A stretch of 64,000 nt of DNA from Owenia fusiformis (lineage: Eukaryota > Annelida > Polychaeta > Sabellida > Oweniidae): positions 89,505 to 153,504 of the forward strand of contig CAIIXF020000014.1 in NCBI GenBank assembly GCA_903813345.2, in the 5' to 3' direction. A program made the translations under genes and the position numbers. Shown here piece after piece: positions 38,110-64,000 of the stretch. The notes under the pieces were generated by a model. That model saw only the letters and a list, made by a program, of their open reading frames with translations, did no database searches and had not been told where the DNA came from. The stretch's first letter is position 1, and every line of letters starts with the position of its first letter.

Positions 38110-38298
38110 TAGACTCCAGATGAAAATCTGGAGTCTATTGCTTTTGCCAGTTTTCTTATTAGACTCCAGATGAAAATCTGGAGTCTATTGCTTTTGCCAG
38201 TTTTCTTATTATTATTATTAGACTCCAGATGAAAATCTGGAGTCTATTGCTTTTGCCAGTTTTCTTTATTAGACTCCAGATTGAAAATCTGGAGTCTA
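38110..38298 (+). repeat. Cluster of four 12-bp-stem mini-hairpins
   Basis: Stem-loops at 38110-38137, 38160-38187, 38219-38246 (all GAAA loops) and 38270-38298 (TGAAA loop), separated by attgcttttgccagttttct and ATT runs. Confidence 0.8.
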
Positions 38299-40235: not shown

Positions 40236-40296
40236 TTCTAGCTGACTCAGCTTATTCTGCATGACTCAGCTTACAGTTTTTCGGATGACTCACCTT
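40236..40296 (+). repeat. Tail satellite, GGATGACTCAGCTTA type (E16)
   Basis: Three degenerate gactcagctta-type units; the last reads gactcacctta. Confidence 0.75.
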
Positions 40297-40365
40297 AAAA
40301 AAAGTTTGAAATCTGGAGTCTTAAATTGAACTTGTTCAATTTACATGTCTAGTTATTATTATTAT

Positions 40366-40447
40366 TAGACTCCAGATTGAAAATCTGGAGTCTATTGCTT
40401 TTGCCAGTTTTCTTATTATTAGACTCCAGATGTCAATCTGGAGTCTA
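40366..40447 (+). repeat. Two 12-bp-stem mini-hairpins
   Basis: Stem-loops at 40366-40394 (loop TGAAA) and 40420-40447 (loop GTCA). The GTCA copy is the last before the head, as in E2 and E11. Confidence 0.8.
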
Positions 40448-41930: not shown

Positions 41931-42177
41931 CATCCATCCTTCCTTTGTGATCCTATCGTATCCTTCTTATCTACCTTTCCTTCATATCCTCTCCTTCCTA
42001 TCCTTCCTATTCTATTCCTTCTTCATATTCTATTCTATCATTCTTTCCTATTCTATCCTATCGTTCCTTCCTATTCTAGCCTATCCTTCCTTCCTTTTTC
42101 ATCCATCCATCCATCCATCTTTTTCTGGATGACTCAGCTTATTTTGGATGACTCGGCTTATTCTGGATGACTCGGCC
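41931..42177 (+). repeat. Tail satellite, CTATC/CTTCC type (E17)
   Basis: Pyrimidine-rich units to about 42120, then three ggatgactc-type units. Nearly the same as the E11 tail apart from repeat-number changes. Confidence 0.8.
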
Positions 42178-42241
42178 AAAAAAAGTCTAGATCTGGAGTC
42201 TGAAATTGAACTTCGTTCAATTTCCAAAGTCTAGTTATTAT

Positions 42242-42270
42242 TAGACTCCAGATTGAAAATCTGGAGTCTA
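42242..42270 (+). repeat. Single 12-bp-stem mini-hairpin
   Basis: tagactccagat paired with atctggagtcta, loop TGAAA, within an ATT microsatellite. Confidence 0.8.
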
Positions 42271-44245
42271 TTGCTTTTGCCAGTTTTATTATTATTATTA
42301 TTATTATTCTTTCCGAACCAGTTTTCTCAGCAACTAGAAGGGCTTACTTAAATCTGCTAACATAGTCAACTAGGTAATGATACCTAGTTTCTGGGAAATT
42401 ATGTCAAATGATTATCTAGGTCAAAGGTCAAGAACTAGGTCAAATCGTGGGTTTTCACTATTTTACAAGTTTTCTCAGTCGTCCTTCGGTATTTTTGCTC
42501 CTGGTTTTTTTCATCATGTTCCTTAGATAAAAAGCTAATTCCGTAAGGCAAATCGTTTTTTGATTACTCTTACCGATTTTGAGAAATGACGTCCGAAAAG
42601 TAGGTCAGAACATAAAAAGTTCTCCAAATTCAACGTGTGAATAATCAAATAAGTGTAGAATTATCTCAGGAATCCGAATCTGCAAACCAAATTTCGATCC
42701 GACTTCCGGTTCGGAAGAAATAGCGTTTCGAAATCTCAAAAATCGCTAAATTTGGTGCCCATGTTAAGTCAATGGGAAAAAAGATTTTTTTGAAGTGATA
42801 AATACGAAATATAGACTTAGCTCAGCTTAATATAATGAATGCCTATAAAAGAAGGGGACCTCAAAAGTTATATAGCTTCAAAATTTGGACACCAAAATGC
42901 CTAGGTCAAAATCTAGGTCAAATTTATAGTTTTTCCTTATTTTTACGATTCTGACACTACACTTTAATAATTTGCTTCAAAATTTTGCATACATGTAGCA
43001 AAGAGTGTGCTAATAGTGTTAGCCTTTTGCCGTCAGAAAGTATTTTGACCCACTTTTGAGATATGGTGTCCAAAATGTAGGTCAAAATAAAAAGTTCTCA
43101 AAATTTAACGTATGAGTTATGAATTAAGGGTAGAATTTTCTCAGGAATCCAAATCTGCAAACCAAATTTCAATCCGACTATTGGTTCGGAAGTTATGGCG
43201 TTTTGAAAGCTAAAAAATCGCTAAATTTGGTGCCCCATGTTATGGCAATGGGAAAAAAGATTTTTTTGAAGTGTAAAATACGAGATATAGACTGAGTACA
43301 GCTTCACACAATGAAAGCCTACAAAAGAAACGGACCTCAAAAGCTATCTAGCTTCAAAATTTGGACACCAAAATGCCTAGGGTCAATATCTAGGTCATAT
43401 TCATAGTTTTACCTTATTTTTGCGATTCTGACATTACACTTTAATGATTTGCTTTGAAATTTTGTATACATGTAGCAAAGAGTGTGCTAATAGTGTTAGC
43501 CTTTTGCCGTCAGGAAGTATTTTGACCCACTTTTGAGATATGGTGTCCGTAAAGTAGGTCTAAATTGAAATTTCTCATAATTTAACTTATGAGTTATGAA
43601 TTAAGGGTAGAATTTTCTCAGGAATCCGAATCTGCAAACCAAATTTCAATCCGACTTTTCGTTGGGAAGTTATGGCGTTTTGAAAGCTCAAAAATCGCTA
43701 ATTTTGGTGCCCAATGTTATGTCAATGAGAAAAAATATTTTTTTGAAGTGTATAATTCCAGATAAAGACTGAGTACAGCTTAAGATTCTGAAAGTCTATA
43801 AAAGAAGGGGACCTCGAAGGCTATCTAGCTTTAAAATTTGGACACCAAAATCCCTAGGTCAAAATCTAGGTCAAATACATAGTTTTTCCTTATTTTTGCG
43901 ATTCTGGCACTACACTTTTAGGATTTGCTTCAAAATTTTGTATACAGGTAGCAAAGAGTGGGCTAATAGTGTTAGCCTTTTGCCGTCAGAGAGTATTTTG
44001 ACCCACTTTTGAGATATGGTGTCCGAAAAGTAGGTAAAAATAAAAAATTCTCCAAATTTTACATATGAGTTATGAATTAAGAGTAGAATTTTCTCAGGAA
44101 TCCGAATCTGCAAACCAATTTTCGATCAAACTTCTGGTTAGATAGTAATAGCGGTTTGAAGTCTCGAAAAGTCGATATGATGATATCCCCATGTCATGCA
44201 TATGGAGTCGAAGATAACATTCTTAAGAGTTGTCTAAATGTCTAT

Positions 44246-44309
44246 ATTCTAGCTGACTCAGCTTAAAGTGAATGACTCAGCTTACAAGTAATTGGATGAC
44301 TCAGCTTAA
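44246..44309 (+). repeat. Tail satellite, GGATGACTCAGCTTA type (E18)
   Basis: Three degenerate units around gactcagctta. Confidence 0.75.
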
Positions 44310-44370
44310 AACAAGTCTTAAATCTGGAGTCTTAAATTGAACTTGTTCAATTTACATGTCTAGTTATTAT

Positions 44371-44397
44371 TAGACTCCAGATTTCATCTGGAGTCTA
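44371..44397 (+). repeat. Single 12-bp-stem mini-hairpin
   Basis: The 12-bp stem is intact; the loop is TTC, the fifth loop sequence seen around the same stem. Confidence 0.8.
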
Positions 44398-45897
44398 TTG
44401 CTTTTGCCAGTTTTCTTATTATTATTATTATTATTTTTCTTTCCGAACCAGTTTTCTCAGCAACTAGAAGGACTTACTTAAATCTGTTAACACAGTCAAC
44501 TGGGTAATGAGACCTAGTTTCTGGGAAATTAGGTCAAATGTTTATCTAGGTCAAAGGTCAAAAACTAGGTCAAATCGTTACTTTTCACTATTTTACGAGT
44601 TTTCTCAGTCGTCCTTCGGTAATTTCGCTCCGGTTTTTTTTCATCATGTTCCTTAGAAAAAAGCTAATTCCGAAAGGCAAACCGTTTTTTGATTACTCTT
44701 ACCGATTTTGAGATATGGCGTCCGAAAAGTAGGTCAGAACATAAAAAGTTCTCCAAAATCAACGTGTGAATTATCAAATAAGTGTAGAATTATCTCAGGA
44801 ATCCGAATCTGCAAACAAAATTTCGATCCGACTTCCGGTTCGGAAGTTATGGCGTTTTGAAATCTCAAAAATCGCTAAATTTGGCGCCCATGTTAAGTCA
44901 ATGGGGAAAAAGACTTTTTCGAAGTGTAAAATACAAGATATAGACTGAGTACAGCTTAACATAATGAATGCCTTAAAAAGAAAGGGACCTCAAAAGCTAC
45001 ATAGCTTCAAAATTTGGACACCAAAATGCCTAGGTCAAAATCTAGGTCAAATTCATAGTTTTCCTTATTTTTACGATTCTGACACTACACTTGAATAATT
45101 TGCTTCAAAATTTTGTATACAGATAGCAAAGAGTGTGTTAATAGTGTGAGCCTTTTGCCGTCAGAAAGTATTTTGACCCACTTTTGAGATATGGTGTCCG
45201 AAAAGTAGGTCAAAATAAAAAGTTCTCCAAATTTAACATATGAGCTATGAATTAAGAGTAGAATTTTCCCAGGAATCCGAATCTGCAAACCAAATTTCAA
45301 TCCGACTATCGGTTCGGAAGTTATGGCGTTTTGAAATCTCAAAAATCGCTAAATTTGGTGCCCCATGTTATGTCAATGAGAAAAAAGATTTTTTTGAAGT
45401 GTAAAATACCAGATATAAACTGAGTACAGCTTAACATTCTGAAAGCCTTTAAAAGAAGGGGACCTCGAAGGCTATCTCGCTTTAAAATTTGGACACCAAA
45501 ATGCCTAGGTCAAAATGTAAGTCAAATTCATAGTTTTTCCTTATTTTTGCGATTCTGACATTACACTTTAATGATTTGCTTCGAAATTTTGTATACAGGT
45601 ACCAAAGAGTGTGCTCATAGTGTAAGCCTTTTGCCGTCACAAAGTATTTTGACCCACTTTTGAGATATGGTGTCTGAAAAGCAGGTCAAAATAAAAAGTT
45701 CTCCAAATTTAACGTATGAGTTATGAATTAAGGGTAGAATTTTTTCAGGAATCAGAATCTTTAAACCAAATTTCGATCCAACTTCTGATTAGATAGTTAT
45801 AGCGGTTTGAAGTCTCGAAAAGTCGATATGATGATATCCCCATGTTAAGCCAATGTAGTCGAAGATAACATTCTTAAGAGTTGTCTAAATGTCTATA

Positions 45898-45960
45898 TTC
45901 TAGCTGACTCAGCTTATTCTGAATGACTCAGCTTACAAGTATTTGGATGACTCAGCTTAA
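45898..45960 (+). repeat. Tail satellite, GGATGACTCAGCTTA type (E19)
   Basis: Three degenerate units around gactcagctta. Confidence 0.75.
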
Positions 45961-46014
45961 AAAAAGTATTAAATCTGGAGTCTTAAATTGAACTTGTTCA
46001 ATTTACATGTCTAG

Positions 46015-48569
46015 TTATTCTTTCTTTCTGCGTTTTCTCAGCAACTAGAGGGACTTCCTAAAATCTGCTAACATAGTCAACTAGGTAATGAGTTCTAGTT
46101 TCTGGGAAATTAGGTCAAGTGTTTATCTAGGTCAAAGGTCAAGAACTAGGTCAAATCGTCTCTTTTTGCTATTTCACAAGTTTTCTCAGTCGTCCTTTGG
46201 TATTTTCGCTCCGGTTTTTTTTCATCATGTTCCTTAGAAAAAAAGCTAATTCCGTAAGGCAAACCGTTTTTTGATTACTCTTACCGATTTTGAGATATGG
46301 CGTCCGAAAAGTAGGTCAGAACATAAAAACTTCTCCAAATTCAACGTGTGAATTATCAAATAAGTGTAGAATTATCTCAGGAATCCGAATCTGCAAACAA
46401 AATTTTGATCCGACTTCCGGTTCGGAAGTTATAGCGTTTTGAAATCTCAAAAATCGCTAAATTTGGTGCCCATGTTAAGTCAATGGGAAAAAAGGCTTTT
46501 TCGAAGTGTAAAATACAAGATATAGACTGAGTTCAGCTTAACATATTGAATGCCTATAAAAGAAGGGGACATCAAAAGCTACATAGCTTCGAAATTTGGA
46601 CACCAAAATGCCTAGGTCAAAATCTAGGTCAAATTCATAGTTTTTCCTTATTTTTGCGATTCTGGCACTACACTTTTAGGATTTGCTTCAAAATTTTGTA
46701 TACAGGTAGCAAAGAGTGTGCTAATAGTGAGAGCCTTTTGCCGTCAGAAAGTATTTTGACCCACTTTTGAGATATGGTGTCCGTAAAGTAGGTCAAAATA
46801 AAAATTTCTCATAGTTTAACTTACGAGTTATGAATTAAGGGTAGAATTTTCTCAGGAATCCGAATCTGCAAACTAAATTTCAATCCGACTTTTCGTTGGG
46901 AAGTTATGGCGTTTTGAAAGCTCAAAAATCGCTAATTTTGGTGCCCCATGTTATGTCAATGAGAAAAAAGATTTTTTTGAAGTGTAAAATACCAGATAAA
47001 GACTGAGTACAGCTTAAGATTCTGAAAGTCTATAAAAGAAGGGGACCTCGAAGGCTATCTAGCTTTAAAATTTGGACACCAAAATCCCTAGGTCAAAATC
47101 TAGGTCAAATACATAGTTTTTCCTTATTTTTGCGATTCTGGCACTACACTTTTAGGATTTGCTTCAAACTTTTGTATACAGGTAGCAAAGAGTGGGCTTA
47201 TAGTGTTAGCCTTTTGCCGTCAGAGAGTATTTTGACCCACTTTTGAGATATGGTGTCCGAAAAGTAGGTCAAAATAAAAAATTCTCCAAATTTTACATAT
47301 GAGTTATGAATTAAGAGTAGAATTTTCTCAGGAATCCGAATCTGCAAACCAAATTTCGATCCGACTTCCGGTTCCAAAGTTATGGCGTGTCCGAAAAGTA
47401 GGTCAAAATAAAAATTCGCCAAATTTAACGTATGAGTTATGAATAAGGGGTAGAATTTTGTCAGGAATCCGAATCTTTAAATCAAATTTCGATCCGACTT
47501 CCGGTTTGAAAGTTATGGCGTTTTGAAATTTCGAGAAAAATCGATCTGATGTTATCCTGTTATCCTGAAGTCAAGGGAAAAAGATTTTTTGAAGTGTAAA
47601 ATACGAGATATAGATTGAGTACAGCTTAAGATAATGAATTCCTATAAAAGAAAGGGACCTCAAAAGCTACCTAGTTTCAATATTTGGACACCAAAATGCC
47701 TAGGTCAAAATCTAGGTCAAATTCATAGTTTTTCCTTATTTTTGCGATTCTGGCACTACACTTTTAGGATTTGCTTCAAAATTTTGTATACAGGTAGCAA
47801 AGAGTGTGCTAATAGTGTTAGCCTTTTGCCGTCAGAGAGTATTTTGACCCACCTCCGACTTTCTGTTTGAAAGTTATAGCGTTTTGAAAGCTCAAAAATT
47901 GCTAAATTTGGTGCCCCATGTTATGTCAATAGGGAAAAAGATTTTTTTGAAGTCTAAAAGACCAGATATAGACTGAGTACAGCTTAACATTCTGAAAGCC
48001 TTTAAAAGAAGGGGACCTCGAAGGCTATCTAGCTTTAAAATTTGGACACCAAAATGCCAAGGTCAAAATCTAGGGCAAATTCATAATTTTCCTTATTTTG
48101 GCGATTCTGACATTACACTTTAATGATTTGCTTCGAAATTTTGTATACAGGTAGCAAAGAGTGTGCTTATAGTGATAGCCTTTTGCCGTCAGAAAGTATT
48201 TTGACCCACTTTTGAGATATGGTGTCCAAAAAGTAGGTCAAAATAAAAAAATCTCCAAATTTAATGTATGAGTTATGAATTAAGGGTAGAATTTTATCAG
48301 GAGTCCGAATCTTTAAACCAAAATACAATCTAACTTCTGGTTAGATAGTTATAGCGGTTTGAAGTCTCGAAAAGTCGATATGATGATATCCCCATGTTAA
48401 GCCAATGGAGTCGAAGATAAAAAATGGAGAGTTGTCTAAATGTCTTAATTCTAGCTGACTCGATCAGCTTATTCTGGATGACTCAGCTTACAAGTATTCT
48501 GGATGACTCAGCTTAAAAAAAAATTAAATCTGGAGTCTTAAATTGAACTTGTTCAATTTACATGTCTAG
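46015..48569 (+). mobile_element. E20: concatemer element with internal deletion, GACTCAGC tail
   Basis: Head of the gcgttttctcagcaactaga type with no mini-hairpin and a perfect DR1 at 46129-46141. Anchors lie near 46292, 46769, 47247, 47390 (partial) and 48208. Near 47851 the sequence jumps from ttttgacccac to ctccgactt, deleting roughly 140 bases of a monomer including its anchor. The tail is 48450-48516, the hairpin 48540-48559 and CTAG 48566-48569. Confidence 0.6.
48450..48516 (+). repeat. Tail satellite, GGATGACTCAGCTTA type (E20)
   Basis: Three degenerate units; the first contains an extra gatc (gactcgatcagctt). Confidence 0.75.
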
Positions 48570-50000
48570 TTATTATTCTTCTTCTTCTTCCTCCTTCCCA
48601 GATTTCTCACCAACTAGAAGAGCTTACTTTAAGCTGCTTACATGATTAACTAGGGAATGTATCTGGCTTTCTGGGAAATGAGGTCAAATTTTTATCTAGG
48701 TCAAAGGTCAAGAACTAGGTCAAATCCAGTACTTTGTCACTTTTTCCCATTATCTCGGTCGTCCTTCAATATTTTTGATCCTGGTTTTTTTCATTGTGTT
48801 CCTCATAAAAAAGTAGAAAACCTAGGGTCGATTTAGTTTTTTGGTATCTCAAACCGATTTCGAGATATCAGTGTCCGAAAACGAGGTCCAAAAAAAATTT
48901 CACCGAATCCAATGTCCAGGATATCAGTCTTATGGGAAATCTTCTCAGGATTCCGAATATGAAAACCGAATTTCGATCTGACTACCGGTTCAGAAGTTAT
49001 GGCGTTTTGAAAATTCAAAAATCGCTAAATTTGGTGCCCCATGTTAATTCAATGGGAAAAAATATTTTTTTGAAGTGTAAAATACGAGATATAGACTAAG
49101 CACAGCTAAACATAATGGAAGCCCATAAAAGAAAGGGACCACAAGACCTTCTTTTCATAAAAATTTGGACACCAAAATGCCTAGGTCAAAATCTAGGTCA
49201 AATTCAAAGTTTTTCCTTATTTTTGCAATTCTGACACTACAGATTAATTATATTCTTCGAAAATTTGTGTACATGTAGCCAAGAGTGTGCTTATAGTGTT
49301 AGCCTTTTGCCGTCAGGAAGTATTTTGACCCACTTTTGAGATATGGTGTCCGAAAAGTAGGTCAAACTAAAAAGTTCTCCAAATTTAACGTATGAGTTAT
49401 GAATTAAGGGTAGAATTTTCTCAGGAATCCAAATCTGCAAACTAAATTTCAATCCGGCTTTTGGTTTGGAATTTATGTCGTTTTGATAGCTCAAAAATCG
49501 CTAAATTTGGTGCCTATGTTATGGCAATGGGAAAAAAGATTTTTTTGAAGTGTAAAATACAAGATATAGACTGAGTACAGCTTAATTTAATGAAAGCCTA
49601 TTAAAGAAGGGGACCTCTAAGGCTACTTAGCTCCAAAATTTGGACACCAAAATGCCTAGGTCAAAATCTAGGTCAAATTTATAGTTTTCCCTTATTTTTG
49701 CGATTCTGACACTATATTTAAATGATTTGCTTTAAAATTTTGTATACAGGTAGCAAAGAGTATGCTAAAAGTGTTAGCGTTTTGCCGTCAGAAAGTATTT
49801 TGACCCACTTTTGAGATATGGTGTCCAAAAAGTAGGCCAAAGTAAAAAGTTTTCCAAAATTAACGTATGAGTTATGAATTAAGGGTAGAATTTTCTCAGA
49901 AATCTAGATCTGCAAACCAAATTTCGATCCGACTACTTGTTCTGAAGTTATGGCGTTTTGAGATCTCAAAAATCGCTAAATTTGGTGCCCCATGTTAAAT

Positions 50001-50500
50001 NNNNNNNNNNNNNNNNNNNNNNNNNNNNNNNNNNNNNNNNNNNNNNNNNNNNNNNNNNNNNNNNNNNNNNNNNNNNNNNNNNNNNNNNNNNNNNNNNNNN
50101 NNNNNNNNNNNNNNNNNNNNNNNNNNNNNNNNNNNNNNNNNNNNNNNNNNNNNNNNNNNNNNNNNNNNNNNNNNNNNNNNNNNNNNNNNNNNNNNNNNNN
50201 NNNNNNNNNNNNNNNNNNNNNNNNNNNNNNNNNNNNNNNNNNNNNNNNNNNNNNNNNNNNNNNNNNNNNNNNNNNNNNNNNNNNNNNNNNNNNNNNNNNN
50301 NNNNNNNNNNNNNNNNNNNNNNNNNNNNNNNNNNNNNNNNNNNNNNNNNNNNNNNNNNNNNNNNNNNNNNNNNNNNNNNNNNNNNNNNNNNNNNNNNNNN
50401 NNNNNNNNNNNNNNNNNNNNNNNNNNNNNNNNNNNNNNNNNNNNNNNNNNNNNNNNNNNNNNNNNNNNNNNNNNNNNNNNNNNNNNNNNNNNNNNNNNNN
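50001..50500. other. Assembly gap (500 N)
   Basis: Exactly 500 N. The round length suggests a placeholder. Open frames read through it are meaningless. Confidence 0.98.
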
Positions 50501-51444
50501 GCTTAACATAATGAATGCTTATAAAAGAAGGGGACCTCAAAAGCTACATAGCTTCAAAATTTGGACACCAAAATGCCTAGGTCAAAATCTAGGTCAAATT
50601 CATAGTTTTTCCTTATTTTTACGATTCTGACACTACACTTTAATAATTTACTTCAAAATTTTGTTTACAGGTAGCGAAGAGTGTGCTAATAGTGTTAGCC
50701 TTTTGCCGTCAGAAAGTATTTTAACCCACTTTTGAGATATGGTGTCCGAAAAGTAGGTCAAAATAAATAGTTCTCCAAATTTAACATATGAGCTATGAAT
50801 TAAGGGTAGAATTTTCCCAGAAATCCGAATCTGCAAACCAAATTTCAATCCGACTTTCGGTTCAGAAGTTATGGCGTTTTGAAAGCTCAAAAATCGCTAA
50901 ATTTGGTGCCCCATGTTATGTCAATGAGAAAAAAGATTTTTTTGAAGTGTAAAATACCAGATATAAACTGAGTACAGCTTAACATTCTGAAAGCCTATAA
51001 AAGAAGGGGACCTCGAAGGCTATCTAGCTTTAGAATTTGGACACCAAAATGCCTAGTTCAAAATCTAGGTCAAATTCATAGTTTTTCTTTATTTTTGCGA
51101 TTCTGACATTACACTTTAATGATTTGCTTCGAAATTTTGTATACAGGTAGCAAAGAGTGTGCTTATAGTGTTAGCTTCTGCCGTCAGAAAGTATTTTGAC
51201 CCACTTTTGAGATATGGTGTCTGAAAAGTAGGTCAAAATAAAAAGTTCTCCAAACTTAACGTATGAGTTATGAATTTAGGGTAGAATTTTCTCAGAAATC
51301 AGAATCTTTAAACCAAATTTCGATCCAACTTCTGATTAGATAGTTATAGCGGTTTGAAGTCTCGAAAAGTCGATATGATGATATCCCCATGTTAAGCCAA
51401 TGGAGTCGAAGATAACATTCTTAAGAGTTGTCTAAATGTCTATA

Positions 51445-51505
51445 TTCTAGCCGACTCAGCTTATTCTGAATGACTGAGCTACTAGTATTTGGATGACTCA
51501 GCTTA
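51445..51505 (+). repeat. Tail satellite, GGATGACTCAGCTTA type (E21)
   Basis: Three degenerate units; one reads gactgagcta. Confidence 0.75.
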
Positions 51506-51560
51506 AAAAAAGTTTGAAATCTGGAGTCTTAAATTGAACTTGTTCAATTTACATGTCTAG

Positions 51561-54500
51561 TGATTTTTGCTTTCGTATGTGCAAAAAGCAAAAATCCTCC
51601 TCACACACGTTCTCGCCAACGAGAGATATTTGGATAAATCTACTCATACACGTTGTTAGGGGGCTAGGCGTAGTTGGTGGGAAATTAGGTCAAATCCTTA
51701 TCTGGGTCAAAGGTCGAAATCTAGGTCGAAATCTGCATTTCCGCTATTTCGGCCTCTCGAGCCTCCTTAAGAAGTCAGAATCGGAGGAAAACTAGCTGGT
51801 CGGAAAGACAGTTTTCCGAGCGTTAAAAAAACAGTGAACCAAATTTCAATCCGACCATTAGTTATCGAGATATACGCGTTTGAAGTTCGCGTACGGGCCA
51901 CCGTTGCCGTATATCTAGACGACACCTGGTATACACCATGTATACGTATCTCTGCGAACAACAGACATTTGAAAGAAAATAGGCCCGGACGATGACTAGA
52001 GCATTTCTAAAACAACGTTTCCCTTCGTCCAACTGACGATTGCGGAATGTAGAACGACACGTACGCTGCTCGAATCTACGTCGAAAGCTCTGTATGGACG
52101 TCTGGAAGGCCTCTTTTTTGAAGGACTATTTTTTGACCTCGACGGATCCGCGAAGCACGAGCCAGGCATTCTCCCCAACTACCTCCCTAGATTCCCCGAC
52201 CTTTAATCGACCATTATAGGCCCTCAGAGCGTCCGTAGAGCCATTTCCCTCTATACGCGTATGGGCAAATCCTATTATGATTTTTGCTTTCGTATGTGCA
52301 AAAAGCAAAAATCCTCCTCACACACGTTCTCGCCAACGAGAGATATTTGGATAAATCTACTCATACACGTTGTTAGGGGGCTAGGCGTAGTTGGTGGGAA
52401 ATTAGGTCAAATCCTTATCTGGGTCAAAGGTCGAAATCTAGGTCGAAATCTGCATTTCCGCTATTTCGGCCTCTCGAGCCTCCTTAAGAAGTCAGAATCG
52501 GAGGAAAACTAGCTGGTCGGAAAGACAGTTTTCCGAGCGTTAAAAAAACAGTGAACCAAATTTCAATCCGACCATTAGTTATCGAGATATACGCGTTTGA
52601 AGTTCGCGTACGGGCCACCGTTGCCGTATATCTAGACGACACCTGGTATACACCATGTATACGTATCTCTGCGAACAACAGACATTTGAAAGAAAATAGG
52701 CCCGGACGATGACTAGAGCATTTCTAAAACAACGTTTCCCTTCGTCCAACTAACGATTGCGGAATGTAGAACGACACGTACGCTGCTCGAATCTACGTCG
52801 AAAGCTCTGTATGGACGTCTGGAAGGCCTCTTTTTTGAAGGACTATTTTTTGACCTCGACGGATCCGCGAAGCACGAGCCAGGCATTCTCCCCAACTACC
52901 TCCCTAGATTCCCCGACCTTTAATCGACCATTATAGGCCCTCAGAGCGTCCGTAGAGCCATTTCCCTCTATACGCGTATGGGCAAATCCTATTATGATTT
53001 TTGCTTTCGTATGTGCAAAAAGCAAAAATCCTCCTCACACACGTTCTCGCCAACGAGAGATATTTGGATAAATCTACTCATACACGTTGTTAGGGGGCTA
53101 GGCGTAGTTGGTGGGAAATTAGGTCAAATCCTTATCTGGGTCAAAGGTCGAAATCTAGGTCGAAATCTGCATTTCCGCTATTTCGGCCTCTCGAGCCTCC
53201 TTAAGAAGTCAGAATCGGAGGAAAACTAGCTGGTCGGAAAGACAGTTTTCCGAGCGTTAAAAAAACAGTGAACCAAATTTCAATCCGACCATTAGTTATC
53301 GAGATATACGCGTTTGAAGTTCGCGTACGGGCCACCGTTGCCGTATATCTAGACGACACCTGGTATACACCATGTATACGTATCTCTGCGAACAACAGAC
53401 ATTTGAAAGAAAATAGGCCCGGACGATGACTAGAGCATTTCTAAAACAACGTTTCCCTTCGTCCAACTGACGATTGCGGAATGTAGAACGACACGTACGC
53501 TGCTCGAATCTACGTCGAAAGCTCTGTATGGACGTCTGGAAGGCCTCTTTTTTGAAGGACTATTTTTTGACCTCGACGGATCCGCGAAGCACGAGCCAGG
53601 CATTCTCCCCAACTACCTCCCTAGATTCCCCGACCTTTAATCGACCATTATAGGCCCTCAGAGCGTCCGTAGAGCCATTTCCCTCTATACGCGTATGGGC
53701 AAATCCTATTATGATTTTTGCTTTCGTATGTGCAAAAAGCAAAAATCCTCCTCACACACGTTCTCGCCAACGAGAGATATTTGGATAAATCTACTCATAC
53801 ACGTTGTTAGGGGGCTAGGCGTAGTTGGTGGGAAATTAGGTCAAATCCTTATCTGGGTCAAAGGTCGAAATCTAGGTCGAAATCTGCATTTCCGCTATTT
53901 CGGCCTCTCGAGCCTCCTTAAGAAGTCAGAATCGGAGGAAAACTAGCTGGTCGGAAAGACAGTTTTCCGAGCGTTAAAAAAACAGTGAACCAAATTTCAA
54001 TCCGACCATTAGTTATCGAGATATACGCGTTTGAAGTTCGCGTACGGGCCACCGTTGCCGTATATCTAGACGACACCTGGTATACACCATGTATACGTAT
54101 CTCTGCGAACAACAGACATTTGAAAGAAAATAGGCCCGGACGATGACTAGAGCATTTCTAAAACAACGTTTCCCTTCGTCCAACTAACGATTGCGGAATG
54201 TAGAACGACACGTACGCTGCTCGAATCTACGTCGAAAGCTCTGTATGGACGTCTGGAAGGCCTCTTTTTTGAAGGACTATTTTTTGACCTCGACGGATCC
54301 GCGAAGCACGAGCCAGGCATTCTCCCCAACTACCTCCCTAGATTCCCCGACCTTTAATCGACCATTATAGGCCCTCAGAGCGTCCGTAGAGCCATTTCCC
54401 TCTATACGCGTATGGGCAAATCCTATTATGATTTTTGCTTTCGTATGTGCAAAAAGCAAAAATCCTCCTCACACACGTTCTCGCCAACGAGAGATATTTG

Positions 54501-57500
54501 GATAAATCTACTCATACACGTTGTTAGGGGGCTAGGCGTAGTTGGTGGGAAATTAGGTCAAATCCTTATCTGGGTCAAAGGTCGAAATCTAGGTCGAAAT
54601 CTGCATTTCCGCTATTTCGGCCTCTCGAGCCTCCTTAAGAAGTCAGAATCGGAGGAAAACTAGCTGGTCGGAAAGACAGTTTTCCGAGCGTTAAAAAAAC
54701 AGTGAACCAAATTTCAATCCGACCATTAGTTATCGAGATATACGCGTTTGAAGTTCGCGTACGGGCCACCGTTGCCGTATATCTAGACGACACCTGGTAT
54801 ACACCATGTATACGTATCTCTGCGAACAACAGACATTTGAAAGAAAATAGGCCCGGACGATGACTAGAGCATTTCTAAAACAACGTTTCCCTTCGTCCAA
54901 CTGACGATTGCGGAATGTAGAACGACACGTACGCTGCTCGAATCTACGTCGAAAGCTCTGTATGGACGTCTGGAAGGCCTCTTTTTTGAAGGACTATTTT
55001 TTGACCTCGACGGATCCGCGAAGCACGAGCCAGGCATTCTCCCCAACTACCTCCCTAGATTCCCCGACCTTTAATCGACCATTATAGGCCCTCAGAGCGT
55101 CCGTAGAGCCATTTCCCTCTATACGCGTATGGGCAAATCCTATTATGATTTTTGCTTTCGTATGTGCAAAAAGCAAAAATCCTCCTCACACACGTTCTCG
55201 CCAACGAGAGATATTTGGATAAATCTACTCATACACGTTGTTAGGGGGCTAGGCGTAGTTGGTGGGAAATTAGGTCAAATCCTTATCTGGGTCAAAGGTC
55301 GAAATCTAGGTCGAAATCTGCATTTCCGCTATTTCGGCCTCTCGAGCCTCCTTAAGAAGTCAGAATCGGAGGAAAACTAGCTGGTCGGAAAGACAGTTTT
55401 CCGAGCGTTAAAAAAACAGTGAACCAAATTTCAATCCGACCATTAGTTATCGAGATATACGCGTTTGAAGTTCGCGTACGGGCCACCGTTGCCGTATATC
55501 TAGACGACACCTGGTATACACCATGTATACGTATCTCTGCGAACAACAGACATTTGAAAGAAAATAGGCCCGGACGATGACTAGAGCATTTCTAAAACAA
55601 CGTTTCCCTTCGTCCAACTAACGATTGCGGAATGTAGAACGACACGTACGCTGCTCGAATCTACGTCGAAAGCTCTGTATGGACGTCTGGAAGGCCTCTT
55701 TTTTGAAGGACTATTTTTTGACCTCGACGGATCCGCGAAGCACGAGCCAGGCATTCTCCCCAACTACCTCCCTAGATTCCCCGACCTTTAATCGACCATT
55801 ATAGGCCCTCAGAGCGTCCGTAGAGCCATTTCCCTCTATACGCGTATGGGCAAATCCTATTATGATTTTTGCTTTCGTATGTGCAAAAAGCAAAAATCCT
55901 CCTCACACACGTTCTCGCCAACGAGAGATATTTGGATAAATCTACTCATACACGTTGTTAGGGGGCTAGGCGTAGTTGGTGGGAAATTAGGTCAAATCCT
56001 TATCTGGGTCAAAGGTCGAAATCTAGGTCGAAATCTGCATTTCCGCTATTTCGGCCTCTCGAGCCTCCTTAAGAAGTCAGAATCGGAGGAAAACTAGCTG
56101 GTCGGAAAGACAGTTTTCCGAGCGTTAAAAAAACAGTGAACCAAATTTCAATCCGACCATTAGTTATCGAGATATACGCGTTTGAAGTTCGCGTACGGGC
56201 CACCGTTGCCGTATATCTAGACGACACCTGGTATACACCATGTATACGTATCTCTGCGAACAACAGACATTTGAAAGAAAATAGGCCCGGACGATGACTA
56301 GAGCATTTCTAAAACAACGTTTCCCTTCGTCCAACTGACGATTGCGGAATGTAGAACGACACGTACGCTGCTCGAATCTACGTCGAAAGCTCTGTATGGA
56401 CGTCTGGAAGGCCTCTTTTTTGAAGGACTATTTTTTGACCTCGACGGATCCGCGAAGCACGAGCCAGGCATTCTCCCCAACTACCTCCCTAGATTCCCCG
56501 ACCTTTAATCGACCATTATAGGCCCTCAGAGCGTCCGTAGAGCCATTTCCCTCTATACGCGTATGGGCAAATCCTATTATGATTTTTGCTTTCGTATGTG
56601 CAAAAAGCAAAAATCCTCCTCACACACGTTCTCGCCAACGAGAGATATTTGGATAAATCTACTCATACACGTTGTTAGGGGGCTAGGCGTAGTTGGTGGG
56701 AAATTAGGTCAAATCCTTATCTGGGTCAAAGGTCGAAATCTAGGTCGAAATCTGCATTTCCGCTATTTCGGCCTCTCGAGCCTCCTTAAGAAGTCAGAAT
56801 CGGAGGAAAACTAGCTGGTCGGAAAGACAGTTTTCCGAGCGTTAAAAAAACAGTGAACCAAATTTCAATCCGACCATTAGTTATCGAGATATACGCGTTT
56901 GAAGTTCGCGTACGGGCCACCGTTGCCGTATATCTAGACGACACCTGGTATACACCATGTATACGTATCTCTGCGAACAACAGACATTTGAAAGAAAATA
57001 GGCCCGGACGATGACTAGAGCATTTCTAAAACAACGTTTCCCTTCGTCCAACTAACGATTGCGGAATGTAGAACGACACGTACGCTGCTCGAATCTACGT
57101 CGAAAGCTCTGTATGGACGTCTGGAAGGCCTCTTTTTTGAAGGACTATTTTTTGACCTCGACGGATCCGCGAAGCACGAGCCAGGCATTCTCCCCAACTA
57201 CCTCCCTAGATTCCCCGACCTTTAATCGACCATTATAGGCCCTCAGAGCGTCCGTAGAGCCATTTCCCTCTATACGCGTATGGGCAAATCCTATTATGAT
57301 TTTTGCTTTCGTATGTGCAAAAAGCAAAAATCCTCCTCACACACGTTCTCGCCAACGAGAGATATTTGGATAAATCTACTCATACACGTTGTTAGGGGGC
57401 TAGGCGTAGTTGGTGGGAAATTAGGTCAAATCCTTATCTGGGTCAAAGGTCGAAATCTAGGTCGAAATCTGCATTTCCGCTATTTCGGCCTCTCGAGCCT

Positions 57501-60500
57501 CCTTAAGAAGTCAGAATCGGAGGAAAACTAGCTGGTCGGAAAGACAGTTTTCCGAGCGTTAAAAAAACAGTGAACCAAATTTCAATCCGACCATTAGTTA
57601 TCGAGATATACGCGTTTGAAGTTCGCGTACGGGCCACCGTTGCCGTATATCTAGACGACACCTGGTATACACCATGTATACGTATCTCTGCGAACAACAG
57701 ACATTTGAAAGAAAATAGGCCCGGACGATGACTAGAGCATTTCTAAAACAACGTTTCCCTTCGTCCAACTGACGATTGCGGAATGTAGAACGACACGTAC
57801 GCTGCTCGAATCTACGTCGAAAGCTCTGTATGGACGTCTGGAAGGCCTCTTTTTTGAAGGACTATTTTTTGACCTCGACGGATCCGCGAAGCACGAGCCA
57901 GGCATTCTCCCCAACTACCTCCCTAGATTCCCCGACCTTTAATCGACCATTATAGGCCCTCAGAGCGTCCGTAGAGCCATTTCCCTCTATACGCGTATGG
58001 GCAAATCCTATTATGATTTTTGCTTTCGTATGTGCAAAAAGCAAAAATCCTCCTCACACACGTTCTCGCCAACGAGAGATATTTGGATAAATCTACTCAT
58101 ACACGTTGTTAGGGGGCTAGGCGTAGTTGGTGGGAAATTAGGTCAAATCCTTATCTGGGTCAAAGGTCGAAATCTAGGTCGAAATCTGCATTTCCGCTAT
58201 TTCGGCCTCTCGAGCCTCCTTAAGAAGTCAGAATCGGAGGAAAACTAGCTGGTCGGAAAGACAGTTTTCCGAGCGTTAAAAAAACAGTGAACCAAATTTC
58301 AATCCGACCATTAGTTATCGAGATATACGCGTTTGAAGTTCGCGTACGGGCCACCGTTGCCGTATATCTAGACGACACCTGGTATACACCATGTATACGT
58401 ATCTCTGCGAACAACAGACATTTGAAAGAAAATAGGCCCGGACGATGACTAGAGCATTTCTAAAACAACGTTTCCCTTCGTCCAACTAACGATTGCGGAA
58501 TGTAGAACGACACGTACGCTGCTCGAATCTACGTCGAAAGCTCTGTATGGACGTCTGGAAGGCCTCTTTTTTGAAGGACTATTTTTTGACCTCGACGGAT
58601 CCGCGAAGCACGAGCCAGGCATTCTCCCCAACTACCTCCCTAGATTCCCCGACCTTTAATCGACCATTATAGGCCCTCAGAGCGTCCGTAGAGCCATTTC
58701 CCTCTATACGCGTATGGGCAAATCCTATTATGATTTTTGCTTTCGTATGTGCAAAAAGCAAAAATCCTCCTCACACACGTTCTCGCCAACGAGAGATATT
58801 TGGATAAATCTACTCATACACGTTGTTAGGGGGCTAGGCGTAGTTGGTGGGAAATTAGGTCAAATCCTTATCTGGGTCAAAGGTCGAAATCTAGGTCGAA
58901 ATCTGCATTTCCGCTATTTCGGCCTCTCGAGCCTCCTTAAGAAGTCAGAATCGGAGGAAAACTAGCTGGTCGGAAAGACAGTTTTCCGAGCGTTAAAAAA
59001 ACAGTGAACCAAATTTCAATCCGACCATTAGTTATCGAGATATACGCGTTTGAAGTTCGCGTACGGGCCACCGTTGCCGTATATCTAGACGACACCTGGT
59101 ATACACCATGTATACGTATCTCTGCGAACAACAGACATTTGAAAGAAAATAGGCCCGGACGATGACTAGAGCATTTCTAAAACAACGTTTCCCTTCGTCC
59201 AACTGACGATTGCGGAATGTAGAACGACACGTACGCTGCTCGAATCTACGTCGAAAGCTCTGTATGGACGTCTGGAAGGCCTCTTTTTTGAAGGACTATT
59301 TTTTGACCTCGACGGATCCGCGAAGCACGAGCCAGGCATTCTCCCCAACTACCTCCCTAGATTCCCCGACCTTTAATCGACCATTATAGGCCCTCAGAGC
59401 GTCCGTAGAGCCATTTCCCTCTATACGCGTATGGGCAAATCCTATTATGATTTTTGCTTTCGTATGTGCAAAAAGCAAAAATCCTCCTCACACACGTTCT
59501 CGCCAACGAGAGATATTTGGATAAATCTACTCATACACGTTGTTAGGGGGCTAGGCGTAGTTGGTGGGAAATTAGGTCAAATCCTTATCTGGGTCAAAGG
59601 TCGAAATCTAGGTCGAAATCTGCATTTCCGCTATTTCGGCCTCTCGAGCCTCCTTAAGAAGTCAGAATCGGAGGAAAACTAGCTGGTCGGAAAGACAGTT
59701 TTCCGAGCGTTAAAAAAACAGTGAACCAAATTTCAATCCGACCATTAGTTATCGAGATATACGCGTTTGAAGTTCGCGTACGGGCCACCGTTGCCGTATA
59801 TCTAGACGACACCTGGTATACACCATGTATACGTATCTCTGCGAACAACAGACATTTGAAAGAAAATAGGCCCGGACGATGACTAGAGCATTTCTAAAAC
59901 AACGTTTCCCTTCGTCCAACTAACGATTGCGGAATGTAGAACGACACGTACGCTGCTCGAATCTACGTCGAAAGCTCTGTATGGACGTCTGGAAGGCCTC
60001 TTTTTTGAAGGACTATTTTTTGACCTCGACGGATCCGCGAAGCACGAGCCAGGCATTCTCCCCAACTACCTCCCTAGATTCCCCGACCTTTAATCGACCA
60101 TTATAGGCCCTCAGAGCGTCCGTAGAGCCATTTCCCTCTATACGCGTATGGGCAAATCCTATTATGATTTTTGCTTTCGTATGTGCAAAAAGCAAAAATC
60201 CTCCTCACACACGTTCTCGCCAACGAGAGATATTTGGATAAATCTACTCATACACGTTGTTAGGGGGCTAGGCGTAGTTGGTGGGAAATTAGGTCAAATC
60301 CTTATCTGGGTCAAAGGTCGAAATCTAGGTCGAAATCTGCATTTCCGCTATTTCGGCCTCTCGAGCCTCCTTAAGAAGTCAGAATCGGAGGAAAACTAGC
60401 TGGTCGGAAAGACAGTTTTCCGAGCGTTAAAAAAACAGTGAACCAAATTTCAATCCGACCATTAGTTATCGAGATATACGCGTTTGAAGTTCGCGTACGG

Positions 60501-63500
60501 GCCACCGTTGCCGTATATCTAGACGACACCTGGTATACACCATGTATACGTATCTCTGCGAACAACAGACATTTGAAAGAAAATAGGCCCGGACGATGAC
60601 TAGAGCATTTCTAAAACAACGTTTCCCTTCGTCCAACTGACGATTGCGGAATGTAGAACGACACGTACGCTGCTCGAATCTACGTCGAAAGCTCTGTATG
60701 GACGTCTGGAAGGCCTCTTTTTTGAAGGACTATTTTTTGACCTCGACGGATCCGCGAAGCACGAGCCAGGCATTCTCCCCAACTACCTCCCTAGATTCCC
60801 CGACCTTTAATCGACCATTATAGGCCCTCAGAGCGTCCGTAGAGCCATTTCCCTCTATACGCGTATGGGCAAATCCTATTATGATTTTTGCTTTCGTATG
60901 TGCAAAAAGCAAAAATCCTCCTCACACACGTTCTCGCCAACGAGAGATATTTGGATAAATCTACTCATACACGTTGTTAGGGGGCTAGGCGTAGTTGGTG
61001 GGAAATTAGGTCAAATCCTTATCTGGGTCAAAGGTCGAAATCTAGGTCGAAATCTGCATTTCCGCTATTTCGGCCTCTCGAGCCTCCTTAAGAAGTCAGA
61101 ATCGGAGGAAAACTAGCTGGTCGGAAAGACAGTTTTCCGAGCGTTAAAAAAACAGTGAACCAAATTTCAATCCGACCATTAGTTATCGAGATATACGCGT
61201 TTGAAGTTCGCGTACGGGCCACCGTTGCCGTATATCTAGACGACACCTGGTATACACCATGTATACGTATCTCTGCGAACAACAGACATTTGAAAGAAAA
61301 TAGGCCCGGACGATGACTAGAGCATTTCTAAAACAACGTTTCCCTTCGTCCAACTAACGATTGCGGAATGTAGAACGACACGTACGCTGCTCGAATCTAC
61401 GTCGAAAGCTCTGTATGGACGTCTGGAAGGCCTCTTTTTTGAAGGACTATTTTTTGACCTCGACGGATCCGCGAAGCACGAGCCAGGCATTCTCCCCAAC
61501 TACCTCCCTAGATTCCCCGACCTTTAATCGACCATTATAGGCCCTCAGAGCGTCCGTAGAGCCATTTCCCTCTATACGCGTATGGGCAAATCCTATTATG
61601 ATTTTTGCTTTCGTATGTGCAAAAAGCAAAAATCCTCCTCACACACGTTCTCGCCAACGAGAGATATTTGGATAAATCTACTCATACACGTTGTTAGGGG
61701 GCTAGGCGTAGTTGGTGGGAAATTAGGTCAAATCCTTATCTGGGTCAAAGGTCGAAATCTAGGTCGAAATCTGCATTTCCGCTATTTCGGCCTCTCGAGC
61801 CTCCTTAAGAAGTCAGAATCGGAGGAAAACTAGCTGGTCGGAAAGACAGTTTTCCGAGCGTTAAAAAAACAGTGAACCAAATTTCAATCCGACCATTAGT
61901 TATCGAGATATACGCGTTTGAAGTTCGCGTACGGGCCACCGTTGCCGTATATCTAGACGACACCTGGTATACACCATGTATACGTATCTCTGCGAACAAC
62001 AGACATTTGAAAGAAAATAGGCCCGGACGATGACTAGAGCATTTCTAAAACAACGTTTCCCTTCGTCCAACTGACGATTGCGGAATGTAGAACGACACGT
62101 ACGCTGCTCGAATCTACGTCGAAAGCTCTGTATGGACGTCTGGAAGGCCTCTTTTTTGAAGGACTATTTTTTGACCTCGACGGATCCGCGAAGCACGAGC
62201 CAGGCATTCTCCCCAACTACCTCCCTAGATTCCCCGACCTTTAATCGACCATTATAGGCCCTCAGAGCGTCCGTAGAGCCATTTCCCTCTATACGCGTAT
62301 GGGCAAATCCTATTATGATTTTTGCTTTCGTATGTGCAAAAAGCAAAAATCCTCCTCACACACGTTCTCGCCAACGAGAGATATTTGGATAAATCTACTC
62401 ATACACGTTGTTAGGGGGCTAGGCGTAGTTGGTGGGAAATTAGGTCAAATCCTTATCTGGGTCAAAGGTCGAAATCTAGGTCGAAATCTGCATTTCCGCT
62501 ATTTCGGCCTCTCGAGCCTCCTTAAGAAGTCAGAATCGGAGGAAAACTAGCTGGTCGGAAAGACAGTTTTCCGAGCGTTAAAAAAACAGTGAACCAAATT
62601 TCAATCCGACCATTAGTTATCGAGATATACGCGTTTGAAGTTCGCGTACGGGCCACCGTTGCCGTATATCTAGACGACACCTGGTATACACCATGTATAC
62701 GTATCTCTGCGAACAACAGACATTTGAAAGAAAATAGGCCCGGACGATGACTAGAGCATTTCTAAAACAACGTTTCCCTTCGTCCAACTAACGATTGCGG
62801 AATGTAGAACGACACGTACGCTGCTCGAATCTACGTCGAAAGCTCTGTATGGACGTCTGGAAGGCCTCTTTTTTGAAGGACTATTTTTTGACCTCGACGG
62901 ATCCGCGAAGCACGAGCCAGGCATTCTCCCCAACTACCTCCCTAGATTCCCCGACCTTTAATCGACCATTATAGGCCCTCAGAGCGTCCGTAGAGCCATT
63001 TCCCTCTATACGCGTATGGGCAAATCCTATTATGATTTTTGCTTTCGTATGTGCAAAAAGCAAAAATCCTCCTCACACACGTTCTCGCCAACGAGAGATA
63101 TTTGGATAAATCTACTCATACACGTTGTTAGGGGGCTAGGCGTAGTTGGTGGGAAATTAGGTCAAATCCTTATCTGGGTCAAAGGTCGAAATCTAGGTCG
63201 AAATCTGCATTTCCGCTATTTCGGCCTCTCGAGCCTCCTTAAGAAGTCAGAATCGGAGGAAAACTAGCTGGTCGGAAAGACAGTTTTCCGAGCGTTAAAA
63301 AAACAGTGAACCAAATTTCAATCCGACCATTAGTTATCGAGATATACGCGTTTGAAGTTCGCGTACGGGCCACCGTTGCCGTATATCTAGACGACACCTG
63401 GTATACACCATGTATACGTATCTCTGCGAACAACAGACATTTGAAAGAAAATAGGCCCGGACGATGACTAGAGCATTTCTAAAACAACGTTTCCCTTCGT

Positions 63501-64000
63501 CCAACTGACGATTGCGGAATGTAGAACGACACGTACGCTGCTCGAATCTACGTCGAAAGCTCTGTATGGACGTCTGGAAGGCCTCTTTTTTGAAGGACTA
63601 TTTTTTGACCTCGACGGATCCGCGAAGCACGAGCCAGGCATTCTCCCCAACTACCTCCCTAGATTCCCCGACCTTTAATCGACCATTATAGGCCCTCAGA
63701 GCGTCCGTAGAGCCATTTCCCTCTATACGCGTATGGGCAAATCCTATTATGATTTTTGCTTTCGTATGTGCAAAAAGCAAAAATCCTCCTCACACACGTT
63801 CTCGCCAACGAGAGATATTTGGATAAATCTACTCATACACGTTGTTAGGGGGCTAGGCGTAGTTGGTGGGAAATTAGGTCAAATCCTTATCTGGGTCAAA
63901 GGTCGAAATCTAGGTCGAAATCTGCATTTCCGCTATTTCGGCCTCTCGAGCCTCCTTAAGAAGTCAGAATCGGAGGAAAACTAGCTGGTCGGAAAGACAG
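51561..64000 (+). repeat. Tandem array of 717-bp units (17 full, one partial), 1434-bp dimer
   Basis: Units start at 51561 and every 717 bases after it (52278, 52995, 53712 and so on to 63033); the last, from 63750, is cut by the window end. As far as I can compare by eye the units are identical except for unit position 475, which is G in odd units and A in even ones without exception over 17 units. Each unit begins with a 12-bp-stem hairpin, contains several more dyads and ends aaatcctatta. Four short frames (83, 64, 60 and 60 residues) recur in nearly every unit, but they have no recognisable domain and no sign of coding constraint. Confidence 0.95.
51562..51596 (+). other. Unit-start hairpin of the 717-bp family (type example)
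   Basis: Perfect 12-bp stem, gatttttgcttt (51562-51573) with aaagcaaaaatc (51585-51596), and an 11-base loop. It is repeated at the start of every array unit and is analogous in position to the E-element mini-hairpins. Confidence 0.85.

What the first reader, a model, noticed from the sequence alone, without database searches (positions are those of the whole stretch)
51561..64000. Strictly alternating single-base variant reveals a 1434-bp dimeric higher-order satellite
Seen: unit position 475 (52035, 52752, 53469 and so on) reads G, A, G, A through all 17 full units, while no other difference is visible. Random mutation with unit-by-unit exchange would not keep perfect alternation. It implies that a G-A dimer was amplified as a block, very recently or under strong homogenisation. 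An assembler looping through a two-unit path would give the same pattern.
Basis: partly seen in the sequence, partly recalled or inferred. Interest (0 to 1): 0.75.

Follow-up and report, generated by a model that had tools for sequence, protein, structure and literature searches.

The report
Clonal repeat arrays beside Helentron-like elements
A 717-letter DNA block is repeated many times with almost no differences, and in this array two versions of it alternate perfectly, as if the array had been printed in one go from a two-block template next to a rolling-circle type of jumping element.

Summary
Unit position 475 alternates G/A through all 17 full units in the window and on to 28 units outside it, where a 500-N gap cuts the array; no other base differs. 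The 717-bp unit is not a free-standing satellite: about 1,000 copies are counted, nearly all accounted for by arrays between the 3' end of one HINE-like (non-autonomous Helentron) element and the 5' end of the next. It is collinear with the HINE 5' region but lacks a HINE 3' end. Thirty-four of 44 paired multi-copy arrays are exact multiples of one unit length. Of 13 complete arrays of at least 4 units read, 6 repeat one variant and 2 an alternating pair. The G/A dimer recurs perfectly in a 26-unit array with different flanks; an unrelated array alternates 714/717-bp units with one slip. Simulated stepwise unequal exchange gave perfect alternation in 0 of 20,000 runs. Best reading: recent bulk copying from one- or two-unit templates, plausibly rolling-circle. 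Copy number, read support and the rolling-circle step are untested.

The parts
51561..64000 (+). 717-bp tandem array (17 full units + 251 bp here; continues outside the window to 27 full units + 581 bp, then an N gap)
52035..52035 (+). first of the alternating sites (unit position 475): G in odd units, A in even units, every 717 bases
51562..51596 (+). terminal hairpin at the 5' end of each unit: GATTTTTGCTTT, 11-nt loop, AAAGCAAAAATC (repeated in every unit)
51595..51884 (+). part of the unit (about positions 35-324) collinear with the 5' body of the HINE-like superunit
   Evidence: weak-scheme score 54.5-62.0 with four superunits; maximum 36.0 in 100 shuffles each
51518..51560 (+). 3' end of the upstream HINE-like element: 3' subTIR ATCTGGAGTCT, palindrome AAATTGAAC-TT-GTTCAATTT, then ACATGTCTAG; the array starts at the next base
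50501..51517 (+). remainder of that upstream element (475-bp core repeats, 19-bp repeat), cut by the assembly gap
50001..50500 (.). 500-N run; with the N run at C14:161005 it encloses a piece of exactly 21,000 bp
20278..20999 (+). single copy of the unit (722 bp, 5-bp insertion) between the same element ends
37380..38108 (+). single copy of the unit (729 bp, 12-bp insertion) between the same element ends
21001..21027 (+). 5' end of the downstream element: AGACTCCAGAT-GAAA-ATCTGGAGTCT hairpin (5' subTIR plus inverted repeat), directly after the single unit
1..50000 (+). tandem chain of HINE-like superunits (475-bp core repeats, 12- or 19-bp repeats, 3' palindrome + CTAG, 5' hairpins); 18 of the 20 superunit 3' ends found here have no 717 unit

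Best explanation
Shown: the 717-bp unit is a module at the junction between two HINE-like (non-autonomous Helentron) elements. It begins exactly after the CTAG 3' end of one and ends exactly before the TTAGACTCC 5' end of the next. It resembles a HINE 5' part that lacks a 3' end. Inferred: arrays arise by bulk copying of one template into many head-to-tail units, most simply rolling-circle replication of a small circle, followed by placement or exchange at the HINE 3' end. A one-unit template gives a uniform array; a two-unit template carrying one new mutation gives the perfect G/A alternation seen here. Arrays then age by point mutation, occasional slips and fusion with other arrays by ordinary homologous exchange. 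The bulk-copying step is better supported than the rolling-circle step.
For: Exact ends: 34 of 44 paired multi-copy arrays are exact multiples of 714, 717 or 722 bp; about 0.2 expected by chance. Few or no free units: 999 exact unit starts genome-wide against 68 element-to-unit starts and 819 internal junctions, total 887; the shortfall of 112 fits the 113 junctions of six C3:18.25-18.36 Mb arrays, which should miss the junction pattern by a second mismatch (inferred from their starts and ends). Clonality: of 13 complete arrays of at least 4 units read, 6 are single-variant (35, 21, 14, 10, 9 and 7 units), 2 are dimeric (C333, C6a), 2 have one deviant unit and 3 are mixed; C14 is a further dimeric array, gap-cut. 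First units of 13 arrays or single copies with 717-bp units differ by 1.8% on average. A and B differ by one base in 717, so pairing cannot tell even from odd register; simulated stepwise unequal exchange gave 0 perfect arrays in 5 x 4,000 runs. Module-like spread: the same dimer array sits beside different elements on C14 and C333, whose upstream elements match at only 83-88%; on C7, 21 and 10 identical units sit between elements 92.7% (left) and 87.4% (right) alike. The genome has Helentron-type frames; 23 of 58 Helitron_like_N matches lie in uninterrupted frames over 3,000 aa, and one locus carries helicase and endonuclease domains.
Against: No reads, so copy number and alternation rest on one assembly; this scaffold is unplaced and looks like re-cut pieces. 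Homologous exchange certainly acts too: C6a has one slip, and C12b fuses two array types through a hybrid unit. Exchange through the conserved HINE ends could move arrays between elements without any circle. Three of 13 complete arrays (C213, C7b, C12b) are mixed, and in C213 and C6c the deviant units lie at an array edge, as slow homogenisation predicts. C147 holds a unit truncated at about position 360, so not every copy is whole. No autonomous Helentron with the same subTIR was found beside the one Rep frame read (C291), and no empty site or circle was looked for or seen.
Confidence: 0.55

Rival explanations
1. Unequal sister-chromatid exchange or replication slippage between chromosomal units, in even register only, built and homogenised the array.
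For: One phase slip in C6a and a hybrid unit joining two array types in C12b show that homologous exchange happens. Exchange in register keeps integer copy numbers and fixed ends. C12b contains a short ABABAB block. C213 and C6c have their deviant units at an edge.
Against: With units differing by one base nothing enforces even register; 0 of 20,000 simulated arrays stayed perfectly alternating (a growth-only model). In 8 of 13 complete arrays the edge units are the same as the inner ones.
Confidence: 0.25
2. Assembly artefact: the assembler walked a two-unit cycle, or polishing made units identical, so alternation and copy number are invented.
For: The array ends in an N gap; the piece is exactly 21,000 bp, and C333, C107, C85, C213 and C147 are exactly 22,000, 29,000, 33,000, 103,000 and 118,000 bp (C291 and C123 are not round). 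No reads were available.
Against: A second complete array (C333) keeps the alternation with both flanks present. C6a carries a slip, and C213, C7b and C12b keep private variants, so consensus calling did not erase all differences. Neighbouring 475-bp repeats stay about 81-88% alike.
Confidence: 0.15
3. C14 and C333 are two alleles or two assemblies of one array, so the dimer was amplified once at one place and nothing moved. This does not exclude the best explanation; it only removes one of its two examples of spread.
For: Same private G, same phase and same first unit. The non-repeat flank of C333 has no near-identical copy in the assembly (of 9 matches one is itself and 8 are 69-73% paralogues on C7).
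Against: The upstream elements are of different types (12-bp against 19-bp repeat) and match at only 83-88%. C7 shows the same identity-without-flanks pattern at two places in one contig.
Confidence: 0.35

Closest known systems
HINE / DINE-1-like elements (non-autonomous Helentrons) with central satellite-like arrays, e.g. Cg_HINE of Crassostrea gigas (PMC7492417, passages read) and HINE-Mo / DINE-1 (PMC4067079, passages read)
   Same: The superunit has 5' subTIR plus complementary inverted repeat, core tandem repeats, microsatellite-like repeats, 3' subTIR and a palindrome close to the 3' end; satellite-like arrays are bound to the element.
   Different: The oyster arrays have monomers of about 140-180 bp, on average up to 5 and at most 29 per array, 8.5-21% diverse within a cluster. 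Here the monomer is 717 bp, arrays reach 35 units among those read and 47 by coordinates, 8 of 13 complete ones are clonal or dimeric, and they lie between two elements rather than inside one.
Tandem arrays of truncated Helitrons with many 5' ends and one 3' end, explained by rolling-circle replication without terminator (Xiong et al. 2016, known here only through the review PMC12628747, passages read)
   Same: Many copies of an element 5' part, head to tail, upstream of one element that has the 3' end.
   Different: The 717 unit has its own 5' hairpin, different from that of the neighbouring HINE. Strict dimeric templates are not mentioned in the passages read.
Higher-order repeats of satellite DNA, as in human alpha satellite (abstract openings in the listing; otherwise recalled)
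   Same: A multimer of near-identical monomers is itself the amplified unit.
   Different: Short arrays, array-private dimers differing by 1 base or by 3 bp + 1 base, dispersed in TE context, with no link to centromeres tested.

Membership tests
HINE (Helentron-associated interspersed element), for the superunit flanking the array | 5' subTIR within a few nt of the 5' end with a complementary inverted repeat close by | tested here: met
   Six 5' boundaries with DNA that does not match the superunit read TTAGACTCCAGAT-(4-5 nt)-ATCTGGAGTCT (hairpin).
HINE (Helentron-associated interspersed element), for the superunit flanking the array | 3' subTIR (inverted copy of the 5' subTIR) and a palindrome near the 3' end | tested here: met
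   ATCTGGAGTCT ends 31 nt and palindrome AAATTGAAC..GTTCAATTT ends about 10 nt before the CTAG end; PMC4067079 gives about 38-60 and 8-35 bp for mite HINEs. 2,989 copies of the 3' motif, at most 1 mismatch, genome-wide.
HINE (Helentron-associated interspersed element), for the superunit flanking the array | Central tandem repeats and microsatellite-like repeats | tested here: met
   475-bp core repeats and 12-, 19- or 5-bp repeats.
HINE (Helentron-associated interspersed element), for the superunit flanking the array | Insertion at TT (or T-rich) without long target duplication | tested here: inconclusive
   An A precedes TTAGACTCC in 6 of 6 left boundaries; TTAT follows CTAG in 3 of 3 right boundaries. 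No empty site was examined, so the exact cut is open.
HINE (Helentron-associated interspersed element), for the superunit flanking the array | Autonomous Helentron partner sharing the termini | tested here: inconclusive
   Helentron-type proteins (Helitron_like_N, PIF1, Exo_endo_phos) exist, but in the one locus read (C291:9801-37800) the only such 3' end is that of the superunit itself.
HINE, for the 717-bp unit itself | Own 3' subTIR and 3' terminal structure matching its 5' hairpin | tested here: not met
   The unit has a 5' hairpin and HINE-like 5' body, but no second AAAGCAAAAATC even with 3 substitutions, no ATCTGGAGTCT with 2, and no CTAG end. It is therefore not filed as a HINE, only as related to a HINE 5' part.
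Higher-order satellite (HOR) | A multimer repeats with far higher identity than the monomers within it, over many copies | tested here: met
   13 full G-A dimers plus most of a 14th on C14 and 13 on C333, all identical between dimers. Monomers within the dimer differ by only one base, so this is the mildest form.
Rolling-circle amplified Helitron array | Circular intermediate or rolling-circle product | not testable with these tools
   No reads, no circle sequencing; inferred only from array structure.

The most novel reading that the evidence does not exclude
The arrays are direct footprints of rolling-circle replication by a recently active Helentron system: each array is one replication product, its repeat unit recording whether the template circle held one or two 717-bp units, placed site-specifically at the 3' end of HINE elements. 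Alternating dimers would then be a readable mark of dimeric transposition circles in a genome.
Probability: 0.35. Interest if true: 0.75.

Novelty: new variant of a known kind. Interest (0 to 1): 0.52.

Why it matters
How long, uniform satellite arrays start is an open question; the usual model is slow unequal exchange. Here dozens of arrays of one unit in one genome, many with their own diagnostic variants and with the same fixed ends, let the models be told apart. One-step copying predicts clonal or strictly periodic arrays from edge to edge; stepwise exchange predicts mixed arrays with divergent edges. Eight of 13 complete arrays read fit one-step copying (one of them with a slip) and the others show later change. 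If confirmed with reads, this would tie satellite birth to rolling-circle transposons in a testable system.

Tried and rejected
rDNA, 5S, snRNA or tRNA array: no tRNA and no Rfam family at gathering score in the whole window. Protein-coding unit: all six frames of the unit carry stops. Telomere motifs, tried to place the organism: no exact (TTTAGGG)3 and no exact (TTAGG)5 in the genome; TTAGGG was not tried and the organism was not identified. Canonical Helitron reading of the superunit: considered because of the palindrome plus CTAG with T following; set aside for HINE because of the two subTIRs and the 5' inverted repeat, while the target site is left open. Idea that the Rep/helicase genes on array-bearing contigs belong to the same element: on C291 the superunit is truncated at about 15,475 and no shared terminus was found up to 37,800, so not claimed. 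Search for an allele of the C333 flank: only 69-73% paralogues on C7. One search used a mistyped pattern and its result is not used.

Limits of the counts. One search printed 16 arrays or single copies from 12 regions; one search added C12b, C11b and C333 whole and parts of C147 and C123; the other arrays are known only from start and end coordinates. In one search starts and ends were paired by nearest neighbour: 66 of 68 starts paired, 2 starts (C14, C497) and 4 ends unpaired. One search shows that one pair is wrong: the C147 pair of 46,802 bp (about 65 units) is a single unit, then superunits with a truncated unit, then another array whose start escaped the pattern. It is among the 10 non-exact multi-copy rows; others of those 10 that I did not read whole (C30, C123, C324, C507, one on C3) may be interrupted too, so the total of 840 units is rough. 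In one search the within-array difference was computed only between units of equal length, so it hides the 714/717 difference of C6a and single-insertion units.

Full report
Observation. The window ends in an exact 717-bp tandem repeat starting at 51561, with 17 full units and 251 bp of an 18th. Neighbouring units differ at one base only, unit position 475, which reads G,A,G,A...,G. The window lies on an unplaced 185,687-bp scaffold (C14) of a 498-Mb assembly, by its size and content eukaryotic. Reading on, the pattern continues through 27 full units and 581 bp of a 28th, then meets a 500-N run. An exact search for the G version finds 14 sites here, all 1,434 bp apart, and 13 on contig C333 with the same spacing; there is no other in the genome. 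Random order would give such perfection with probability 5e-8 for 14 G and 13 A.

The unit is a module, not a free satellite. At all 11 sites the unit or array starts exactly after ..CAATTTACATGTCTAG (or a close variant), and at the 10 whose right end is not in a gap it ends exactly before TTAGACTCCAGAT..; the five regions agree. Searches for these two junctions list 68 starts and 70 ends; pairing nearest ends gives 66 rows, 22 single copies and 44 longer. Of the 44, 34 are exact multiples of 714, 717 or 722 bp, against about 0.2 expected by chance, the longest exact one 47 units (C22, coordinates only). The other 10 include arrays with mixed unit lengths (C6a, C6c, C12b, C11b) and at least one wrong pair: on C147 a single unit, superunits with a unit truncated at about position 360, and a further array were paired as one. 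The first 18 bases of the unit occur 999 times. Starts (68) and internal junctions (819) make 887; the missing 112 fit the 113 junctions of six C3:18.25-18.36 Mb arrays (119 units), which by their starts and ends should differ from the junction pattern at two bases. So few if any units lie elsewhere; this accounting is an inference from counts, not a reading of every copy.

What flanks it. The flanking DNA is a superunit of about 1.4-3 kb, longer where something is inserted, repeated head to tail through the window. Its 5' end, seen at six boundaries with DNA that does not match the superunit, is TTAGACTCCAGAT-(4-5 nt)-ATCTGGAGTCT; its 3' end is ATCTGGAGTCT, palindrome AAATTGAAC..GTTCAATTT and about 10 more nt ending CTAG, followed by TTAT in three of three right boundaries. 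Inside are 475-bp core repeats and 12-, 19- or 5-bp repeats. This is the layout described for HINE/DINE-1 elements, non-autonomous Helentrons (passages of PMC4067079, and PMC7492417). The 3' motif occurs 2,989 times with at most one mismatch; the 100 places listed (all on C1) include isolated copies and clusters. The genome also has Helentron-type proteins: 58 Helitron_like_N matches, 23 in uninterrupted frames above 3,000 aa; the one I looked at (C291) carries PIF1 helicase and Exo_endo_phos domains, in two frames. I did not find the superunit's termini on that Rep-bearing locus, so the partner is unproven.

The 717 unit starts with its own hairpin (GATTTTTGCTTT..AAAGCAAAAATC). From about position 35 to 208 (two of four superunits) or 324-336 (the other two) it is collinear with the superunit's 5' body: weak-scheme local scores are 54.5-62.0 against a maximum of 36.0 in 100 shuffles per comparison. 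It shows no second copy of its hairpin arm, no superunit subTIR and no CTAG end. It therefore looks like the 5' part of a related element without the 3' part.

Clonal arrays. Thirteen complete arrays of at least 4 units were read. Single variant, 6: C6d (35 units of 722 bp), two on C7 (21 and 10), C1 (14), C9 (9) and C3 (7). Dimeric, 2: C333 (26, perfect ABAB) and C6a (18, ABABABABABAABABABA, where A is 714 bp with a 3-bp deletion and a substitution and B is 717 bp). One deviant unit, 2: C6c (12, the last unit) and C11b (8, the seventh). Mixed, 3: C213 (ABCDDDD), C7b (ABCC) and C12b (AABABABCDEFFFFFFFF). C14, cut by the gap, is dimeric and perfect; C107 has two different units; of C147 4 whole units (all alike) and of C123 6 (the sixth deviant) were compared. 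First units of 13 arrays or single copies with 717-bp units differ by 1.8% on average. So arrays are far more uniform inside than between. Against one-step copying, the deviant units of C213 and C6c lie at an edge, where slow homogenisation would leave them.

Spread without flanks. C14 and C333 hold the same private dimer, in the same phase, but their upstream elements are of different types (19-bp and 12-bp repeat) and match at only 83-88%. On C7 two arrays with all 31 units identical lie about 3.9 kb apart, between elements that are 92.7% alike on the left and 87.4% on the right. Arrays thus appear to have been copied into place as modules, or exchanged through the short conserved element ends; the data do not separate these. 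C14 and C333 might also be alleles: the non-repeat flank of C333 has only 69-73% paralogues elsewhere.

Mechanism. Growth from A-B to 26 units by unequal exchange at random register gave 0 perfectly alternating arrays in 4,000 runs at each of five maximum shifts. The model is simple (growth only, one exchange at a time); even-register exchange alone would keep the phase, but a one-base difference in 717 gives pairing no means to choose it. A single copying event from a two-unit template explains the alternation, and the same event from one unit explains the uniform arrays. Rolling-circle replication is the obvious candidate, because Helitrons replicate that way and because arrays with many 5' ends and one 3' end have been attributed to it (Xiong et al. 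2016 as reported in the review PMC12628747). This step is inference. Exchange between arrays is also shown: unit D of C12b is a hybrid switching type between unit positions 287 and 362. With no private mutation in 53 full units of the dimer (38,001 bp), the amplification is at most about 26,000 generations old at an assumed rate of 3e-9 per site and generation (the rate is recalled, not measured here), if nothing homogenised the arrays since.

Assembly. Pieces of exactly 21,000 bp (C14:140005-161004), 22,000, 29,000, 33,000, 103,000 and 118,000 bp and 500-N gaps suggest re-cut Hi-C scaffolding pieces (the inference about the software is recalled; C14 as a whole, C291 and C123 are not round). 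Copy numbers are therefore uncertain. Against a pure artefact: the complete C333 array, the slip in C6a, the retained private variants in C213, C7b and C12b, and the 81-88% alike 475-bp repeats next door.

Known and new. Satellite-like arrays in HINEs are known, and rolling-circle origin of Helitron arrays has been proposed. Seven paper searches ran (I saw listings with abstract openings, and passages of three papers). None of the titles, abstract openings or passages I saw describes strictly alternating dimer arrays or array-by-array clonality at HINE junctions. Most subscription papers are not in that library, so this is not a claim of absence from print.

Checking. 

Noticed in passing
31331-31972 (+) and 32602-34553 (-): Two arrays of a 42-bp repeat in opposite orientation (about 16 and 47 motif matches) flank a 629-bp centre, like a foldback element; a second such pair lies just after the gap on the same scaffold (about C14:161511-164789).
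   Followed up: no
G000, e.g. C13, C515, C505, C3:71448: 58 Helitron_like_N matches, 23 in uninterrupted frames above 3,000 aa, several clustered on the same contigs (C13, C515): apparently a recently active, very large Helentron family.
   Followed up: partly
G000:C12:34860395-34873275: An 18-unit array made of two unit types joined by a hybrid unit: a recorded exchange between arrays.
   Followed up: yes
L033 (C147:67701-77600): A single unit, a unit truncated at about position 360 and the start of another array lie within about 6 kb, separated by superunits; the array start has a changed junction.
   Followed up: partly
50001-50500 and the scaffold around it: The scaffold piece with the array is exactly 21,000 bp between two 500-N gaps, and the superunits after the second gap run in the opposite orientation, so neighbours across the gaps may not be true neighbours.
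   Followed up: partly
L024:1-685 (C333): The non-repeat flank of the second dimer array looks like granulin-coding DNA (judged by eye, not scanned), with 69-73% paralogues in a cluster at C7:1.698-1.704 Mb.
   Followed up: partly
G000 contigs C291, C324, C505, C507, C213 and C5:12.37-12.41 Mb: Where a Rep frame lies within about 70 kb of a 717 copy, the Rep strand is opposite to the 717 strand in all six cases that I found by comparing the lists; unexplained and possibly chance.
   Followed up: partly
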